Positions 38,987 to 46,236 are shown, counted from the stretch's first letter. The stretch is 64,000 nt of DNA from an uncultured Rikenellaceae bacterium (GCA_944326945.1 CALVFY010000001.1:62001-126000), one strand, 5' to 3'. Made by a program: numbers and translations. The notes: a model not told the origin generated them from the letters alone.

Positions 38987-39015
38987 AAAATCCCGGCTAT
39001 TATGGCCGGGATTTT
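38987..39015. terminator. Bidirectional terminator between isomerase and fimbrillin genes
   Basis: 11-bp stem (38987-38997 with 39005-39015), 7-nt loop, A-run and T-run outside. It serves the convergent genes ending at 38958 and 39022. Confidence 0.85.
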
Positions 39016-39021
39016 CGGTTT

Positions 39022-41286
39022 TTATTCTCCATAGATGTATTCTACCGGAGACTTTTTGAAGCGGAGAATGCGGGTGTCTTTGTTGCCGGCGCCGTTTTTG
39101 TGCATATAAAGTCCCGCCATGCTGCCATTGATATACCAACCTGATCCTTCGGGTGAGTATACGGAAAACAGGATGTTGTTGTAGTGGTTTGAATGCAGAA
39201 TTCCTTCCGCGTTCCATTGTGCACCCGGTCCGTACCAGGTGATGGGTTCCTGTTCGGGGAAATCCGGACTCCACATTTTGCAGTATAACAAATCTGTCGC
39301 CTGAATAGTCCCTACTTGTATGTCGTTGCGTCGTCGTTGCTCGCGCTTTACTTGATAATGGCCTTCCCAGGGCGACCGAAGATGATGTGTTCCGTTCCAC
39401 ATCATCCAGATGTAATCGGTTGCATCGAATACTCTGTTGAATTCTTCCATCGAGGGGAGTTCATATCCGTCTGGAGCTAAAGTGTTGGCCGGTAGTTTGT
39501 TGATATGGGCCGATACGTTGGTCGAAAATCCTTCCATGACGAGTATGCCATTCTTTTCCACAACCCGCATCCCGATGCCGCTGTCTCCTTGATAGGCCCA
39601 TCCCCATAGGTTGTAGAACTCTTCGGGAGAACAGTCTCTCAGATAATCGAATACACTTTTCCCGGCAGCTGCCGCAGGGTCGGCGGAGGAGAGTATTTGG
39701 TCGTCGAAAGAGCGGGAGTTGCCTCGGGCGTTGTATTTACACCACCATACTCCATGAAACCATGTGACGGGTAATCCATAGTTGCGCCGGGAGATACGAT
39801 ACTCTTCCCGGCCCGAACCGTCATTCGTGTTGCGGATGACGAGAGTTGCGGTTTGAGTTCTGCCGTTAGCCGAGGGATCATTCGGTTTCCATCCTCCCAA
39901 TACACGAATGGTTTGTGCCTCGTTTCCGATCGGAGAGAGTTGGACCCAGGGATCTTCTCCCTCTTCAAACTCTACCGCCAGTTCCTTGTCGGCGGGGAGA
40001 ATAAAACGACCCAATTCATTTTCAACATATCGGCCGAAATCGAAACTGTGGTTTTCCATATCGAAAGAAATGGGCCCTTCGAGTCGGACGGGGTTTGCCG
40101 AAAGATGCAAAACGATCTGGTCTTCCGGATAGGTTTCGTTCAATCCTTGGCGACGGAACTGCAGGATTATTTCGTCGGCGGGTTTCCCCGGAACATAAAG
40201 CGGTTTGCTCACTCGAAATCTGTTTTTTCCATCCACACCTCGGGTTGAGTTGTCCGGTTCGATTGTCAGAGGGTACCCCGTGACGGGAATCAGTTCGAGT
40301 TCGTCGTTGCAATCCAATACCAGTGTCAATTCTGTTGGGTCGTGAGGAAGCGTAAGCGTCGTTTTGTCATCGGAAACCACGGCCCCTGAAGGTAGTTCCG
40401 ATTGATCGGTGTCAACTATAATTTGTCCGTTCCAATCTGGAATCATGCCGATATCACCACCGTTTTCCCACGGTTCTACGGTCAATTGTACCTCTTGGTC
40501 GGCTACGTCTTTGAGAAGAGTTACTATATAAATACAGTTGCGGCGGATCGATTCGGGGAGTTTGGCCTCGAGTTCGTAACGTTTTCCATTCACGATGGCA
40601 TCTGCTCGGAGAACCAAATCGGAATTCGTCTGTTCATAGACATAGGCCACTCCGGGAGTGTCTTTCGTGTAGGGCGAATCGGGCCGGAAGGTAATATCTC
40701 CTCGGTCTGTGGCGACAGGATCCTTTCCGGCGATGATGCCCGTACGTAGTGCAGCTCCTTCCAGGGTGAGCTGCTCTATCTGTGCCGGACCGACCGTCCG
40801 GATATGCAGATCGAAACGAGCCACGCCTCGAGTTAGTTTTACCTTGGCCTCTTTGGATAATGTCGTGCTTCCCGAAAAGAATCGGATGGGAAGACCCTGG
40901 GCGGTTCCTGCCGTCATGGAGAGCCACTCTTGTTCGGAGATGCCCGTCTGGCAGAGACTTTTCAGATCGGAAATGGCGGTCGTATTGGTCAGTACGTAGA
41001 GGGTGCCCGTTTCGCGAGGGATGCGAAATCCATAACCGCTCGTACTTGCAACGGGTTGATCGTACACTTGGGTCATGCGTCCATTTTCGAACAGGCATGC
41101 TTGGAGATCATCCAGATCGTTTTCTCCCTGGATGTTCTCGCCGGAGGTTTCGTAATCGGCCAGTTGTACCGTTACAAAGGATTCTGCAGGAGTGATTTCG
41201 GTATCCGACTCGATCTGCGAGCAAGATGTTGCCATTGCACCCGAAGCGATGAGTGCCGCGAAGATCACATTTATTTTTATATTCAT
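39022..41286 (-). CDS. Fimbrillin-like lipoprotein (Mfa/FimA-type, DUF4906-like)
   Basis: 754 residues from ATG 41286; the frame runs on to 41526 but overlaps the upstream gene and is not leader-like. Lipobox ATSC follows the signal peptide. The N-terminal half has fimbrillin sandwich features (LTNTTAISDLKSLC, VARFDLHIRTV, NCIYIVTLL). The middle carries an Ig-like region with DFGRYVENELGRF, and the C-terminal half a FISUMP-like domain (GVWWCKYNARGNS, LAPDGYELPSMEEFNRVF) ending in KKSPVEYIYGE. Paralogue of the next gene; their ends are almost the same. Probable tip or surface adhesin of a Bacteroidales type V pilus. Confidence 0.72.
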   Translation of the reverse strand: MNIKINVIFAALIASGAMATSCSQIESDTEITPAESFVTVQLADYETSGENIQGENDLDDLQACLFENGRMTQVYDQPVASTSGYGFRIPRETGTLYVLTNTTAISDLKSLCQTGISEQEWLSMTAGTAQGLPIRFFSGSTTLSKEAKVKLTRGVARFDLHIRTVGPAQIEQLTLEGAALRTGIIAGKDPVATDRGDITFRPDSPYTKDTPGVAYVYEQTNSDLVLRADAIVNGKRYELEAKLPESIRRNCIYIVTLLKDVADQEVQLTVEPWENGGDIGMIPDWNGQIIVDTDQSELPSGAVVSDDKTTLTLPHDPTELTLVLDCNDELELIPVTGYPLTIEPDNSTRGVDGKNRFRVSKPLYVPGKPADEIILQFRRQGLNETYPEDQIVLHLSANPVRLEGPISFDMENHSFDFGRYVENELGRFILPADKELAVEFEEGEDPWVQLSPIGNEAQTIRVLGGWKPNDPSANGRTQTATLVIRNTNDGSGREEYRISRRNYGLPVTWFHGVWWCKYNARGNSRSFDDQILSSADPAAAAGKSVFDYLRDCSPEEFYNLWGWAYQGDSGIGMRVVEKNGILVMEGFSTNVSAHINKLPANTLAPDGYELPSMEEFNRVFDATDYIWMMWNGTHHLRSPWEGHYQVKREQRRRNDIQVGTIQATDLLYCKMWSPDFPEQEPITWYGPGAQWNAEGILHSNHYNNILFSVYSPEGSGWYINGSMAGLYMHKNGAGNKDTRILRFKKSPVEYIYGE

Positions 41287-41324
41287 GGTTTTCAAGTTTT
41301 TTTCGGTTTGTCGATGAAATATCC

Positions 41325-43586
41325 TTATTCGTAAATGTATTCCACCGGACTCTTGATGCATCGGATCAGGCGGGTTTTCGTCGAGTTCTGACTGGTGAAT
41401 TTCAGCCAGTTCTGGCCAGGTCGGCTGGCCTGGGAGTAACCCTCCATGATCCAGGTGCTTCCTTGACTTCCGTGGGTGGCCAGCAACATCACCATACGGG
41501 CGATATTGCCCGGTGTGGTATCCCATTGATGACCCAGTCCGTAGAGAACCCAGCAGTCGGTTCCGGATCGGAATTCGTAGAACGATACAGTGCCGTAGGG
41601 CTGACCCAGAAGGGTGGCTTCCCGTTCGATGATTCGGACGGAAATCTCATCTCCATTGCGGTTTTTGTAACTACGCGATCCTACGCCGCCTATGTTGTAG
41701 TTGTCGCTGGCACTGAAAAAGGCGTAGTCGTCATAGTCCGGAATTCGGTAGCCGTCGGGGGCCATGAGGGTCGGATCCAGGGTCCCGAAATTCTGACCCG
41801 AAGAGAACATCCCCTCGTGGTAGAAAGCCGAACCGTCGTGTCGTAGAGGGAGACCTTGCAGGTTCCCCGCTTGATATTGATCACCCATCAGGCGCAGCAG
41901 TTCCGTATCGTCGCACGAATTCAGATAGTCGGCCAGCTCGGTACTGGCTGCCGGATCGGACCGGATCGGAATCTGATCGCCAAATTCTTTAACATTCCCT
42001 CGTAGATTGTATTTGCACCACCAGGTTCCTCCGATTTCCACTACGGGAAGTCCCCAGTTGCGTCTGCGAACTGAATAGCTTTCCGGGTCGGAGCCGTCGC
42101 GATTGGAGATGACGATGTGTCCCTCCTGTTCACGGCCGTCAGCCGTCGGGTCGTTGGGCTTCCAACCTCCCAATATGCGCCATTGGCCGTTCTCCTCTAC
42201 CAGTTTCATCCAGGGGTCTTCGCCGGCATCGAATGCAAGACGTACGGTCTTCTCTTCGGGGAGTGAAATCCGGCCCAGTTCCCCGTCGACGTATTTCCCG
42301 AAATCGCAGACTCCGTTTTCATCCAGTTCGATTGATCCCGAAAAGTGGATCGGACTCGGTTCGAACATGATCACGACCCGTCCGGAATGGATATTGTTTT
42401 GGCGTACATTCAGATAGAGGACACCCCCCTTTTCATCGGGCATTCTCCGGGTGTTGGTGATGGCGACCGAAGCGACCGGTTGCAAAGACCGTGTCACGGC
42501 TTCTACCTGAGCCGTCACTCCGCGGACCATACCTTCGATTTCTACTTCCGAATTGGCTTCGGCGCGCAGTACCAACCGGAATGCATTTTCCGTATAGGCT
42601 ACATAGACCGAATCTTGCGAAGTGTTTACCCTCACGCCCTGAGGTAGTGTGGAGCCTGCTACGTCGACAATTCCTTTCAGGTCGGGGGTGGCTTCGGTAG
42701 AGGAGCCCTCGTCCCATCCGTCCGGGACAATCGTTACGGAAGCGTTTGCTCCTTTGCCATGGATGCGAAGAGTGTAAATTCGGTTGCGGTGGATCGGATT
42801 CGGGAAAGTGGCTGTCATGCGGTGGTCGCCTCCGCCGAAAGAGGCTATTACCTCGGCAGTTATCGGGTCTCCCGTTTGCTCACAAAGGTAGAGCAGGGTC
42901 TCGGTTTTGTTTTCCAGCGATTCCGGAGAGTATTCTTTTTTGAAATCGGTTCGGACAGCCGCGTTCGGAGTGGCGGGTGCCGAAGGCCCGATTACATAGC
43001 CTTGAGCGGCGATCCCCCGGATCGTTACCCGTTGAACCGTCACGCCCTGTTCTTCAGAGGCGATGTCTATGCGGGCTACACTGCGTTTCATGCGAATCGT
43101 GGTAGCTGTTTGGTGTGCGGATAGTTCCATGCGGCCGGTCATCATCAGCCGATTGCTTGCCATCGTGGCGGTCGGAGCGGATATATTCAGAAATTCTTCG
43201 AGAGAGGAACTCTCGGGTTGGAACGTTCCGAAAATTTCCGAAAAGTCGTTCGCTACGAAATAGATGACTCCCGATAGCTCGCGGGGATAAAACGTATAGG
43301 TTCCGTCCGTGTCCAGACGTTCTCCCTGAAGGGCTTCACGGAAGGTGCCCTGGATGAAGTGATATCCGGTCACCTGTTCGATGGCAGAGTCGTTGAGGTT
43401 GTCAGGGGGCGTGTTTGTTTGAGAAGAGTTTCGTCCGGAGACTAAACCGTCTGCCACCAACCGTACCGTGATTCTATTCTCGGTTCCGGAAACCGCCAGG
43501 TCGGTTTCGAGCGATTTGTTGCATCCCGTGGTCAGAAGCAGCCCGGGAAGCAGAAAGAGCAGATATTTTAAGCGATTCGTTTTCAT
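41325..43586 (-). CDS. Fimbrillin-like lipoprotein, tandem paralogue
   Basis: 753 residues. Lipobox TTGC. Same three-part build as the downstream gene: fimbrillin-like half (YFVANDFSEIFGTF, VARIDIASEEQGV, NRIYTLRIHGKG), middle domain with DFGKYVDGELGRI and GGWKPNDPTADGR, and C-terminal FISUMP-like half (GTWWCKYNLRGNV, MAPDGYRIPDYDDYAFF), ending in IKSPVEYIYE. The copies align along their full length, so they arose by duplication and then diverged. Probable surface-exposed fimbrial component. Confidence 0.72.
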   Translation of the reverse strand: MKTNRLKYLLFLLPGLLLTTGCNKSLETDLAVSGTENRITVRLVADGLVSGRNSSQTNTPPDNLNDSAIEQVTGYHFIQGTFREALQGERLDTDGTYTFYPRELSGVIYFVANDFSEIFGTFQPESSSLEEFLNISAPTATMASNRLMMTGRMELSAHQTATTIRMKRSVARIDIASEEQGVTVQRVTIRGIAAQGYVIGPSAPATPNAAVRTDFKKEYSPESLENKTETLLYLCEQTGDPITAEVIASFGGGDHRMTATFPNPIHRNRIYTLRIHGKGANASVTIVPDGWDEGSSTEATPDLKGIVDVAGSTLPQGVRVNTSQDSVYVAYTENAFRLVLRAEANSEVEIEGMVRGVTAQVEAVTRSLQPVASVAITNTRRMPDEKGGVLYLNVRQNNIHSGRVVIMFEPSPIHFSGSIELDENGVCDFGKYVDGELGRISLPEEKTVRLAFDAGEDPWMKLVEENGQWRILGGWKPNDPTADGREQEGHIVISNRDGSDPESYSVRRRNWGLPVVEIGGTWWCKYNLRGNVKEFGDQIPIRSDPAASTELADYLNSCDDTELLRLMGDQYQAGNLQGLPLRHDGSAFYHEGMFSSGQNFGTLDPTLMAPDGYRIPDYDDYAFFSASDNYNIGGVGSRSYKNRNGDEISVRIIEREATLLGQPYGTVSFYEFRSGTDCWVLYGLGHQWDTTPGNIARMVMLLATHGSQGSTWIMEGYSQASRPGQNWLKFTSQNSTKTRLIRCIKSPVEYIYE

Positions 43587-43600
43587 GGCAAGGGGGTGAT

Positions 43601-45457
43601 TTAATATTTGTTGGGATTTTGGGCGCTGTTCAGATAAGAAGGCGAGTCAATGGGCATTTCATGGATGTGAGATACATAAAACTTGTTCATCAATTCCTGA
43701 GCCCAAGGTCCATAAGTGAATGAACTGCTATGATTGTATCCCATCACGTGACCCAATTCGTGGAACATGATCTCGCAGGAGTAGGTGTCGGAATAGTGTT
43801 GGAACCAGGCCTGTTGATAGGCTCCGAATACGCTGCCTCCTCCCAGACCGATGACCCCGTTCCCGGGATAGACCAATCCTACACGTAGCGTACGTGGTTG
43901 GCGCATCTGTTTTAATACCACTTCGGCAGTTACCTTGTCGTCTACTCCGCCGTTTCCGTAGAGCCGGTCGGCATTCTCCCGGAGAATTTCTTCGTGTTCG
44001 GGCATGTCGATCATGTAGGTGAAGTTCAGAAAGAGGGCTACTGCTTCGCGGCAGTGTACGGGACGAATTCCCATCCAGTTGCCTGTGGGTCCTCCGTTCG
44101 GGAGTTCCGGATTGCCTCCGTACAGGGCGAAACTGATGTTCCAACCGTGTTCGATGGCCTCGAGTTTCTCCCAGAACGGGTCCTCCGATGAGGCACGGAA
44201 TTCGACTCCATTCAATTCCGAGACCGAGAGAGGTCCTATTTCCAGAATCCGTCCCGATTCCGTACGGCAAAAAGTTTTTCTTAAAACCAGAGGAGATTCT
44301 CCATAAAAATCGGCGAACGCGGGAATACAGTCGAAATAGGCCAGATCGAAGAATTCTCCACCGCTTATGGATGGAATTTTGGCTTGGATCAGTACTTCGT
44401 GCAGGTCGCGCGGAGAGTAGAATCGGACATGAAGTTTGCCCTCATCTGTGAAAGAAACCTGGAGAGGTTTGGAGGTGTTGAACGAACGTTGTGATTCGTC
44501 CGTGTAGATGTTGTGATGCTCGTCGTCTTGGAGGATGTAGGTCAATCCGGTTTTGTCGAACGTTTGTTCCGTAATGAAGGCCGTGCCCGATTGGTCATCG
44601 GGATGTACGACCGGAATATGAATGGTCTCGATACGATTGGGTGCCACTTCTTCCAGAGAAAAGTCGTATGTCCGGCGGATCGTGTGGCCCCGGTAGTTGC
44701 GCGAAGTCAATTCGATTTCACCTTGAATGGATCCCTCTTCGACGGTTGGAGGAAACAGGCAGGAGGTTCCCGAATTCAGATTCATGGCGAAAGAGGTGCC
44801 ATCGCTTTCTCCTGTAAAGGAACCGCTGCCCAGAAGCCGGGTATGAAAGCGGGGAGAATGCAGGGTGACATTTTTCGTGAGCAGGGCCGTTTCGACATAC
44901 AGATTATTGAATGCGAAAGAGAAATCCGTGCGGCCGATAATCCGATGTTGAATCAACTCGTCTGAGAGAACCGCTGAGATTTCGTTGCCCGAGGGTCCCG
45001 CCTGGGATATTACCGAAAACGGAGTTTGGGAATAGAAATATTCTGCTTTGAGAGGTCTTCGCAGATCTGAGGGAAATGTCAGCCACTCTTGGTCGATATG
45101 TTGCAGCGACCGGATCGATACTCCGTCGTCGGTCGGATTGCCTTTGATTCCCAGGATCAACAGACGATAGCTCCCTTCGCGAAGCCCTTCGATCCGTATT
45201 TGCGATGTGGCCGGGTCGAAAAGTCCTTTCAAGCCGCTGACTGCGACACCCGATTCGTCTACGACACAAAACTCCACCCGATCGTAATCGGCTTCGTGAG
45301 AGGTGTTGGACCGGGAGATTACCTCTTCATAATCATTGTATTGCAGTTTAAATGCGATTCCTTGAGTCGAGGGGGAGGGGATTTCCATCCATTCGTCGTT
45401 CCGACAAGCTGTCAATAGAACGATGCAACCCAATAAAACATACACTATTCTATTCAT
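43601..45457 (-). CDS. Lipoprotein with fimbrillin-like N-terminus and metzincin zinc-protease motif
   Basis: 618 residues from ATG 45457; the leader ends at LLTAC, a lipobox. Residues about 30-280 resemble Mfa2/FimB-type anchor proteins (VEFCVVDESGVAVSGLKG, GSYRLLILGIKGN). Near the C-terminus HELGHVMGYNH (about 566-576) is an exact metzincin signature HExxHxxGxxH. A methionine 28 residues later (HIHEMPID) could be the Met-turn. A membrane-anchored protease is thus likely. It is the first gene of a three-gene operon with two fimbrillin-like genes, whose proteins might be its targets or partners. Family assignment beyond the zinc motif is uncertain. Confidence 0.78.
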   Translation of the reverse strand: MNRIVYVLLGCIVLLTACRNDEWMEIPSPSTQGIAFKLQYNDYEEVISRSNTSHEADYDRVEFCVVDESGVAVSGLKGLFDPATSQIRIEGLREGSYRLLILGIKGNPTDDGVSIRSLQHIDQEWLTFPSDLRRPLKAEYFYSQTPFSVISQAGPSGNEISAVLSDELIQHRIIGRTDFSFAFNNLYVETALLTKNVTLHSPRFHTRLLGSGSFTGESDGTSFAMNLNSGTSCLFPPTVEEGSIQGEIELTSRNYRGHTIRRTYDFSLEEVAPNRIETIHIPVVHPDDQSGTAFITEQTFDKTGLTYILQDDEHHNIYTDESQRSFNTSKPLQVSFTDEGKLHVRFYSPRDLHEVLIQAKIPSISGGEFFDLAYFDCIPAFADFYGESPLVLRKTFCRTESGRILEIGPLSVSELNGVEFRASSEDPFWEKLEAIEHGWNISFALYGGNPELPNGGPTGNWMGIRPVHCREAVALFLNFTYMIDMPEHEEILRENADRLYGNGGVDDKVTAEVVLKQMRQPRTLRVGLVYPGNGVIGLGGGSVFGAYQQAWFQHYSDTYSCEIMFHELGHVMGYNHSSSFTYGPWAQELMNKFYVSHIHEMPIDSPSYLNSAQNPNKY

Positions 45458-45547: not shown

Positions 45548-45555
45548 CAAAAATA
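45548..45555 (-). promoter_or_regulatory. -7 box of the metzincin-fimbrillin operon
   Basis: Minus-strand TATTTTTG gives a start near 45544. No TTTG -33 box is present, but a 16-bp palindrome is centred about 41 bp upstream of that start. Confidence 0.5.
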
Positions 45556-45576: not shown

Positions 45577-45592
45577 CGTAACATTTGTTACG
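45577..45592. promoter_or_regulatory. 16-bp palindrome, candidate Crp/Fnr-family site
   Basis: CGTAACA-TT-TGTTACG, two perfect 7-bp arms around 2 bp. It lies between the divergent regulator and metzincin operon, centred near -41 for the latter, the position used by Crp-type class II activators. Confidence 0.6.
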
Positions 45593-45624: not shown

Positions 45625-46236
45625 ATGGATTGCGAAATTTATGATATGCCTCTTTTTAAGGGGTGTGACCGGCTATTGTTGGACGAGGTGCTTGGAAAAT
45701 CCTCCAGCCGGTTTGCCTCTTATCGTAAAGGTGATTTTATTGCCATGCAGAACAGTGTCTGCCGGTCGTTATATCTGTTGTGTGAAGGGAGCGTCTATGC
45801 TCAGATGATCAGTGAAGAGGGCCGGGAATTTACACTCGACACGCTTTCCGCTCCGGATGTGCTTGCATCGGCCTTTCTTTTTGGAACAGAGAATGTGCTG
45901 CCTGTTACGATTGTGGCCAATTCGGATTGTGAGTTGTGGATTGTCAGCAAGGAGAGTATACAGTTGCTTATTGAACAGGATAAGGCAGTCCTCCGTAATT
46001 TTTTAGCTGTATTGTCAGATCACAGTCTGTTTTTGAGTCGCAAACTGGAGCAATTCGCTTTGCAGACCTTATCTTCTCGGTTACTTGGTTTTTTGGAAAA
46101 GGATGGAGCTATACAGAATCTGCAGGAGACGGCATTTATTCTTGGGGTGACGAGGCCGTCGTTGTCGCGGGTGATCTCGCAGTTGGTTCGCCAGGGCATG
46201 ATTCGGAAAACGGAAGCAGGGTATGTGTTAGCCTGA
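45625..46236 (+). CDS. Crp/Fnr-family transcription regulator
   Basis: 203 residues. N-terminal cyclic-nucleotide-binding-like barrel (YRKGDFIAMQNSVCRSLYLL, EGSVYAQMISEEGREFTLD), a long dimer helix, and a C-terminal winged helix (TLSSRLLGFL, TAFILGVTRPSLSRVISQL). No cysteine set of the Fnr iron-sulfur type is visible, and the cAMP-contact residues of Crp are not obvious. It is divergent from the metzincin-fimbrillin operon with a palindrome between them, so it probably controls that operon and itself. Its signal is unknown. Confidence 0.9.
   Translation: MDCEIYDMPLFKGCDRLLLDEVLGKSSSRFASYRKGDFIAMQNSVCRSLYLLCEGSVYAQMISEEGREFTLDTLSAPDVLASAFLFGTENVLPVTIVANSDCELWIVSKESIQLLIEQDKAVLRNFLAVLSDHSLFLSRKLEQFALQTLSSRLLGFLEKDGAIQNLQETAFILGVTRPSLSRVISQLVRQGMIRKTEAGYVLA

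What the first reader, a model, noticed from the sequence alone, without database searches (positions are those of the whole stretch)
39022..45457. Membrane-anchored metzincin encoded with two duplicated fimbrillin-like lipoproteins
The first gene has an exact HExxHxxGxxH zinc motif at the end of a lipoprotein with a pilus-anchor-like N-terminus. The next two genes are fimbrillin-like proteins with FISUMP-like ends. Bacteroidales pili normally depend on Rgp-type proteolysis; a protease built into the pilus operon would be a different solution or a surface attack system.
Basis: partly seen in the sequence, partly recalled or inferred. Interest (0 to 1): 0.6.

Follow-up and report, generated by a model that had tools for sequence, protein, structure and literature searches.

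The report
Pilin-protease fusion with two lectin-like pilins
Gut Bacteroidales carry a conserved, separately regulated gene set in which a zinc protease is built onto a pilus-subunit-like surface lipoprotein and made together with two adhesin-like pilus proteins, which suggests a cutting tool displayed on an adhesive surface structure.

Summary
The first gene (43601-45457, minus strand) encodes a lipoprotein with a type V pilin module (model residues 31-288; DALI-scale Z about 12 to Mfa4, Mfa2 and other anchors) followed by a metzincin-like catalytic domain (profile E 1e-15 to PDB 9tpb). HELGHVMGYxH is invariant in 65 homologues. The next two genes are paralogous pilin plus FISUMP-like lipoproteins. 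The genes stay together in Bacteroidales: 80 of 80 species loci keep the first pair, and in a 344-genome sample the fused metzincin and the third protein occur in the same 7 genomes. A divergent Crp/Fnr gene has an HcpR2-type recognition helix; its palindrome GTAACnnnnGTTAC lies exactly 29 bp from the -7 box in 63 of 63 loci. The likeliest reading is a protease displayed on an adhesive type V-pilus-like complex that cuts external proteins. Substrate, activity and anchor-versus-tip position are untested. The Met-turn methionine is Phe at the aligned position.

The parts
43601..45457 (-). Pilin-metzincin fusion lipoprotein, 618 aa: signal peptide and lipobox Cys18; type V pilin module about 31-288; metzincin-like domain about 290-618
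   Evidence: AlphaFold pLDDT 89.6; pilin fold hits; 9tpb match; 65-sequence alignment
43730..43762 (-). Zinc motif HELGHVMGYNH (residues 566-576), invariant in 65 homologues at H, E, H, G, H
45311..45313 (-). Arg49 in the flexible beta1-beta2 loop (pLDDT under 50 at residues 47-50), like the clip site of shaft and tip pilins
   Evidence: comparison with PMC5789003
41325..43586 (-). Pilin plus FISUMP-like lipoprotein 1 (753 aa), FimD-like N-terminus
   Evidence: NCBIfam FimD_tip_adhes E 1.4e-6 for residues 1-218, below cut-off; PF09603 E 0.0034
39022..41286 (-). Pilin plus FISUMP-like lipoprotein 2 (755 aa): pilin module 33-276, Ig-like middle domains, C-terminal domain homologous to that of protein 1
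   Evidence: AlphaFold pLDDT 89.4; 4rdb Z 15.1, Mfa3 Z 13.2; hhalign
45625..46236 (+). Divergent Crp/Fnr regulator with HcpR2-type recognition helix RPSLSR
   Evidence: PF00027 E 1.7e-14; helix RPSLSR in 60/60 loci regulators compared; published rule
45578..45591 (.). Regulator palindrome GTAACAAATGTTAC, the only copy in the genome that is not inside a long ORF
45548..45555 (-). Bacteroidota -7 box TATTTTTG, 29 bp from palindrome centre (63 of 63 loci)
38987..39015 (-). Terminator-like hairpin that closes the operon

Best explanation
This is a three-gene (in about half of relatives four-gene) surface operon of the type V pilus kind. Its first product carries a metzincin-like zinc protease on a pilin module, and its other products are pilin modules carrying FISUMP-like, probably lectin-like, C-terminal domains. 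Inferred working: all are exported as outer-membrane lipoproteins. The Arg loop of the metzincin subunit is clipped by the surface clostripain, its groove takes a strand from a partner, and the assembled short complex presents the protease beside two adhesive domains. There it cuts a target protein outside the cell (host, dietary or microbial). An HcpR2-like Crp/Fnr protein activates the operon from a class-II-like site. Shown here: sequences, predicted folds of two proteins, operon conservation, co-occurrence, regulator site. Inferred: assembly, clipping, protease activity, substrate, inducing signal.
For: Pilin fold of residues 31-288. Catalytic domain homologous to the structure 9tpb, which its depositors call a metzincin (E 9.9e-16). 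Invariant zinc site. Operon order kept in 80/80 species loci for genes 1-2, with the third gene in 77 (the other three contigs end first). Fused metzincin and third protein occur in the same 7 of 344 genomes. Palindrome in 61/61 loci with the regulator (window included) and missing in 18 of 20 without a detected one; spacing 29 bp in 63/63. Pilin module plus C-terminal effector is the layout of tip pilins (PMC12632263). [STAG]R[ASTQ] in the loop of 40/65 against 12.8 on average in shuffles (maximum 26), and 0/40 and 0/26 in the third and extra pilins. Catalytic-only relatives occur beside propeller-like lipoproteins and no pilins, so pilin clipping is not the general job of this protease family.
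Against: No activity or substrate is known. The metzincin Met-turn residue is Phe580 in 65/65, and the zinc geometry could not be inspected. The pilin module resembles anchors more than tips by fold: known anchors take ranks 2-5 of the Z table, although the first row is the tip component Mfa4 and rows within 1 of each other are tied. No sequence-level homology of that module to Mfa2 or Mfa_like_1 was found. Assembly into one complex is not shown. Two structure predictions of monomers only.
Confidence: 0.5

Rival explanations
1. One reading: the metzincin is the dedicated maturation protease of the partner pilins and removes their first strand so that they can assemble, in place of Rgp or clostripain.
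For: Strict co-occurrence with the partners. The beta1-beta2 loops of partners are poor in Arg/Lys: third protein 32% against about 72% expected, extra pilin 23% against 68%, with no Arg at all in 26, so Arg-specific clipping there is unlikely.
Against: The partner loop is ordered in the model (block pLDDT 87-88) and need not be cut at all. The genome has a lipoprotein clostripain and other pilins with normal clip sites. Catalytic-only relatives have no pilin neighbours. The second protein's loop is neutral (49% with Arg).
Confidence: 0.22
2. Anchor version: the fusion keeps its lipid and is the basal anchor of the complex, so the protease works at the cell surface rather than at a tip.
For: The four known anchors (5nfi, 3gf8, 3pay, 4qdg as named in PMC5789003) stand at ranks 2-5 of the Z table, and 5nfi and 3pay fill the first four Foldseek rows for this module, but anchors stand at ranks 13-25 for the third protein.
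Against: Anchor Mfa2 has no clip site and a rigid loop. Here the loop is disordered and has Arg in 61/65. A 330-residue domain follows the module, which is the layout of tips.
Confidence: 0.35
3. The domain is a pseudo-protease used for binding only.
For: Phe at the Met-turn position.
Against: All zinc ligands and the catalytic Glu are invariant in 65 sequences down to about 50% identity. The Met-turn position is Met, Leu, Ile or Phe in relatives that keep the zinc motif.
Confidence: 0.06

Closest known systems
Type V (Bacteroidota) pili: P. gingivalis Mfa1-5 and FimA-E, gut Bacteroidales fimbrillins
   Same: Lipoprotein pilins with the two-domain fold; anchor, shaft and tip division of labour; C-terminal effector domain on tip pilins; FimD-like second protein
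   Different: One subunit carries a metzincin; no ordinary shaft pilin in the window operon; a tight HcpR2-like regulator site
Metzincin of PDB 9tpb/9tpc
   Same: Homologous catalytic domain over about 270 residues with HExxHxxGxxH
   Different: No pilin module in the 356-residue chain's matched part; has Met where this family has Phe580; biological role not found in the library
Gingipain Rgp (C25) and Bacteroidales clostripain (C11), the known pilin-clipping proteases
   Same: Surface proteases tied to pili
   Different: Cysteine proteases of unrelated fold, not part of the pilus subunit
FISUMP (Fib_succ_major) tip pilins
   Same: Pilin module with FISUMP-like C-terminal domain
   Different: Two paralogues with a conserved [S/T]xVEYIY tail and below-cut-off Pfam scores
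Mfa5 (von Willebrand A domain tip component of P. gingivalis)
   Same: A large effector domain on a fimbrial tip component
   Different: vWA domain and type IX export, not a protease lipoprotein
HcpR2 branch of Crp/Fnr regulators
   Same: Recognition helix with Pro181 and motif GTAACnnnnGTTAC
   Different: Sits beside a pilin-protease operon instead of hcp; heme or NO sensing untested

Membership tests
Type V pilus subunit (metzincin fusion protein) | Lipoprotein signal | tested here: met
   Lipobox Cys18 aligned in 64/65 homologues
Type V pilus subunit (metzincin fusion protein) | Two-domain pilin fold | tested here: met
   Residues 30-291: Z 12.7 to 4rdb (4.1 A over 231), 12.2 to Mfa2 5nfi (5.8 A over 231), 11.6 to Mfa4 5dhm (3.5 A over 205)
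Type V pilus subunit (metzincin fusion protein) | Flexible beta1-beta2 loop with exposed Arg/Lys | tested here: met
   Arg in 61/65, Arg/Lys in 63/65; pLDDT under 50 at 47-50
Type V pilus subunit (metzincin fusion protein) | Sequence family Mfa2, FimA or Mfa_like_1 | tested here: inconclusive
   No Pfam or hhalign match; fold only
Type V pilus subunit (metzincin fusion protein) | Strand exchange and polymerisation | not testable with these tools
   needs experiment
FimB/Mfa2 anchor | Closest fold to anchors | tested here: inconclusive
   Anchors at ranks 2-5 of the Z table and first in Foldseek, tied with the tip component Mfa4
FimB/Mfa2 anchor | No clip site and rigid loop | tested here: not met
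   Arg in 61/65, loop disordered in the model
Metzincin | HExxHxxGxxH | tested here: met
   65/65
Metzincin | Met in the Met-turn | tested here: inconclusive
   Phe580 in 65/65 where 9tpb has Met; Met590 is invariant nearby; geometry not seen
Metzincin | Homology to a solved metzincin | tested here: met
   9tpb E 9.9e-16; the name is the depositors'
FISUMP tip pilin (second and third proteins) | Fib_succ_major domain | tested here: inconclusive
   Protein 1 E 0.0034, below cut-off, 21/51 homologues; protein 2 only by homology to protein 1
FISUMP tip pilin (second and third proteins) | Pilin module | tested here: met
   Z 15.1 to 4rdb (3.4 A over 220), 13.2 to Mfa3 (3.6 A over 220) for protein 2; hhalign to Mfa_like_1 probability 91-93% for both
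HcpR2 regulator | Recognition helix with Pro181 and GTAACnnnnGTTAC site | tested here: met
HcpR2 regulator | Control of hcp, heme binding | not tested
   not examined here

The most novel reading that the evidence does not exclude
A type V pilus whose tip is a working metzincin: clipped free by clostripain, held by FISUMP adhesin pilins, and induced by an HcpR2-like sensor, perhaps of nitrosative stress. That would be an adhesive, inducible protease fibre of gut commensals.
Probability: 0.3. Interest if true: 0.8.

Novelty: new variant of a known kind. Interest (0 to 1): 0.55.

Why it matters
Pilus tips of Bacteroidota are known as binders. A subunit with an enzyme built in would make the pilus a targeted cutting device, and would give a defined, testable surface-protease system in common gut commensals (Alistipes, Phocaeicola, Barnesiella, Mediterranea). 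The fixed HcpR2-type site gives a prediction of when it is made.

Tried and rejected
Fragilysin, CpaA and archaemetzincin NCBIfam hits (E 0.06-0.4) were rejected as matches to the zinc motif only. PDB sequence hits for the second and third proteins (glutamine cyclotransferase, a nanobody) are chance. Papers: 9tpb/9tpc/9tpy were not found in the library, and no paper found describes the operon. The C25 gingipain search of the genome was empty, but its control was silent too, so absence is not shown. The two other GTAACnnnnGTTAC matches in the genome lie inside ORFs. The conserved VEYIY tail of the FISUMP-like proteins as a donor strand: considered, not supported, since it is ordered in the monomer model.

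Full report
Observation. The coordinates and the description are right. On the minus strand lie three genes: 43601-45457 (618 aa), 41325-43586 (753 aa) and 39022-41286 (755 aa), 14 and 38 bp apart, closed by a hairpin at 38987-39015. All three begin with a lipoprotein signal. The first has HELGHVMGYNH at residues 566-576 of 618. In 65 homologues down to about 50% identity both His of HExxH, the Glu, the Gly and the third His never change, and the lipobox Cys is kept in 64. The motif is therefore conserved under selection and not chance.

What the first protein is. An AlphaFold model from 65 sequences has mean pLDDT 89.6. Residues 31-288 fold like type V pilins: Z 12.7 to 4rdb, described as PG_0181 (which I take to be Mfa4), 12.2 to anchor Mfa2 and to 3gf8, 11.6 to Mfa4 5dhm; Foldseek puts Mfa2 first. 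No sequence profile sees this. Residues 312-583 match the solved chain 9tpb, named metallopeptidase/metzincin by its depositors, at E 9.9e-16. The alignment puts Phe580, invariant in 65, where 9tpb has the Met of HDGNMTY. Distant relatives have Met, Leu, Ile or Phe there. By sequence it is thus a metzincin homologue with a substituted Met-turn residue; the geometry of the site was not visible to me.

What the partners are. The second and third proteins are paralogues (28% identity), with homologous pilin modules and homologous C-terminal domains. The third has a confident model whose residues 33-276 match 4rdb (Z 15.1), Mfa3 (13.2) and FimA (12-13). The second matches the NCBIfam FimD tip adhesin over residues 1-218, below cut-off, and the FISUMP Pfam weakly. 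In about 37 of 80 species an extra pilin of about 300 aa, related to the N-terminus of the third protein, lies between them; in about ten the third protein lacks its pilin module.

A real unit. In 80 of 80 species loci the second gene follows the first, and the third follows in 77; the other three contigs end first. In one sample of 344 Bacteroidales genomes the pilin-fused metzincin occurs in 7 genomes and the third protein in the same 7, with one extra 45-residue fragment hit. A distant pair (23% identity) in G405 is still linked to a pilin-FISUMP-like gene.

Regulation. A divergent Crp/Fnr gene (45625-46236) accompanies the operon in 60 loci besides the window. The palindrome GTAAC-N4-GTTAC is present in 61 of 61 of these (window included) and absent in 18 of 20 loci without a detected regulator (two of those 18 have little upstream sequence). 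The distance from its centre to the TAnnTTTG box is 29 bp in 63 of 63. That places the site where a class II activator binds (inference). The regulator's recognition helix is RPSLSR in all 60 loci regulators that could be compared. A published comparative study gives GTAACnnnnGTTAC as the HcpR2 motif and ties it to Pro at position 181 of that helix (PMC1274295). In this genome the palindrome occurs three times, and only this copy is outside a long ORF. Whether the regulator senses heme or NO was not tested.

Anchor or tip. In P. gingivalis, clipped subunits have a flexible beta1-beta2 loop with an exposed Arg, while the anchor has a rigid loop and no site (PMC5789003). The fusion protein has Arg in this loop in 61 of 65 homologues, the motif [STAG]R[ASTQ] in 40 (12.8 in shuffles), and the loop is disordered in the model. 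The third protein and the extra pilin are depleted of Arg and Lys there, and the third protein's loop is ordered. The fold points the other way: known anchors stand at the top for the fusion but far down for the third protein. I cannot decide; the loop is the more direct criterion, so I lean to the fusion being a clipped, outward-facing subunit.

Does it replace Rgp? The genome has one lipoprotein clostripain (sequence), and a review names a surface clostripain as the pilin-clipping enzyme of gut Bacteroidales (PMC12632263). Another locus of the same genome has pilins with SRA, TRA and SRS sites and no metzincin. Catalytic-only relatives in other Bacteroidota stand beside propeller-like lipoproteins and no pilins. 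These facts make an external substrate more likely. Against this, the partners lack Arg sites, so a private maturation role is not excluded.

Verdict. Confirmed observation, partly supported interpretation. It is a new variant of the type V pilus kind: a pilin-metzincin fusion with FISUMP-like pilins under an HcpR2-like switch. Assembly, activity and substrate are inference.

Noticed in passing
window 45578-45591 and 45625-46236; loci L002-L081: HcpR2-type Crp/Fnr regulator and palindrome with a fixed 29 bp spacing to the -7 box in 63 of 63 loci; loci of Bacteroides/Phocaeicola type that lack the regulator also lack the site.
   Followed up: yes
L120-L130 (other Bacteroidales and other Bacteroidota genomes): Catalytic-only relatives of the metzincin sit next to, or are fused to, a propeller-like lipoprotein (DUF5074 E 2e-6 in L128). 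This looks like a second, separate metzincin-propeller pair.
   Followed up: partly
window 43601-45457, residues Cys469 and Cys561 of the first protein: Two Cys are invariant in the catalytic domain of 65 homologues, one five residues before the zinc motif; possible disulphide or latency device.
   Followed up: no
L050, L062 (second gene), L008, L063 (third gene), L043: The partner genes are split into two ORFs in some genomes; frameshift, phase variation or assembly error.
   Followed up: no
Genome-contig hits L002-L081: Many of the records with the operon have names that suggest poultry-gut metagenomes (gallinarum, pullorum, avium); may be sampling or a bird-gut link.
   Followed up: no
L133 (G000:C14): A separate locus with Mfa_like_1 pilins carrying SRA/TRA/SRS loop motifs, beside other lipoprotein genes.
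   Followed up: partly
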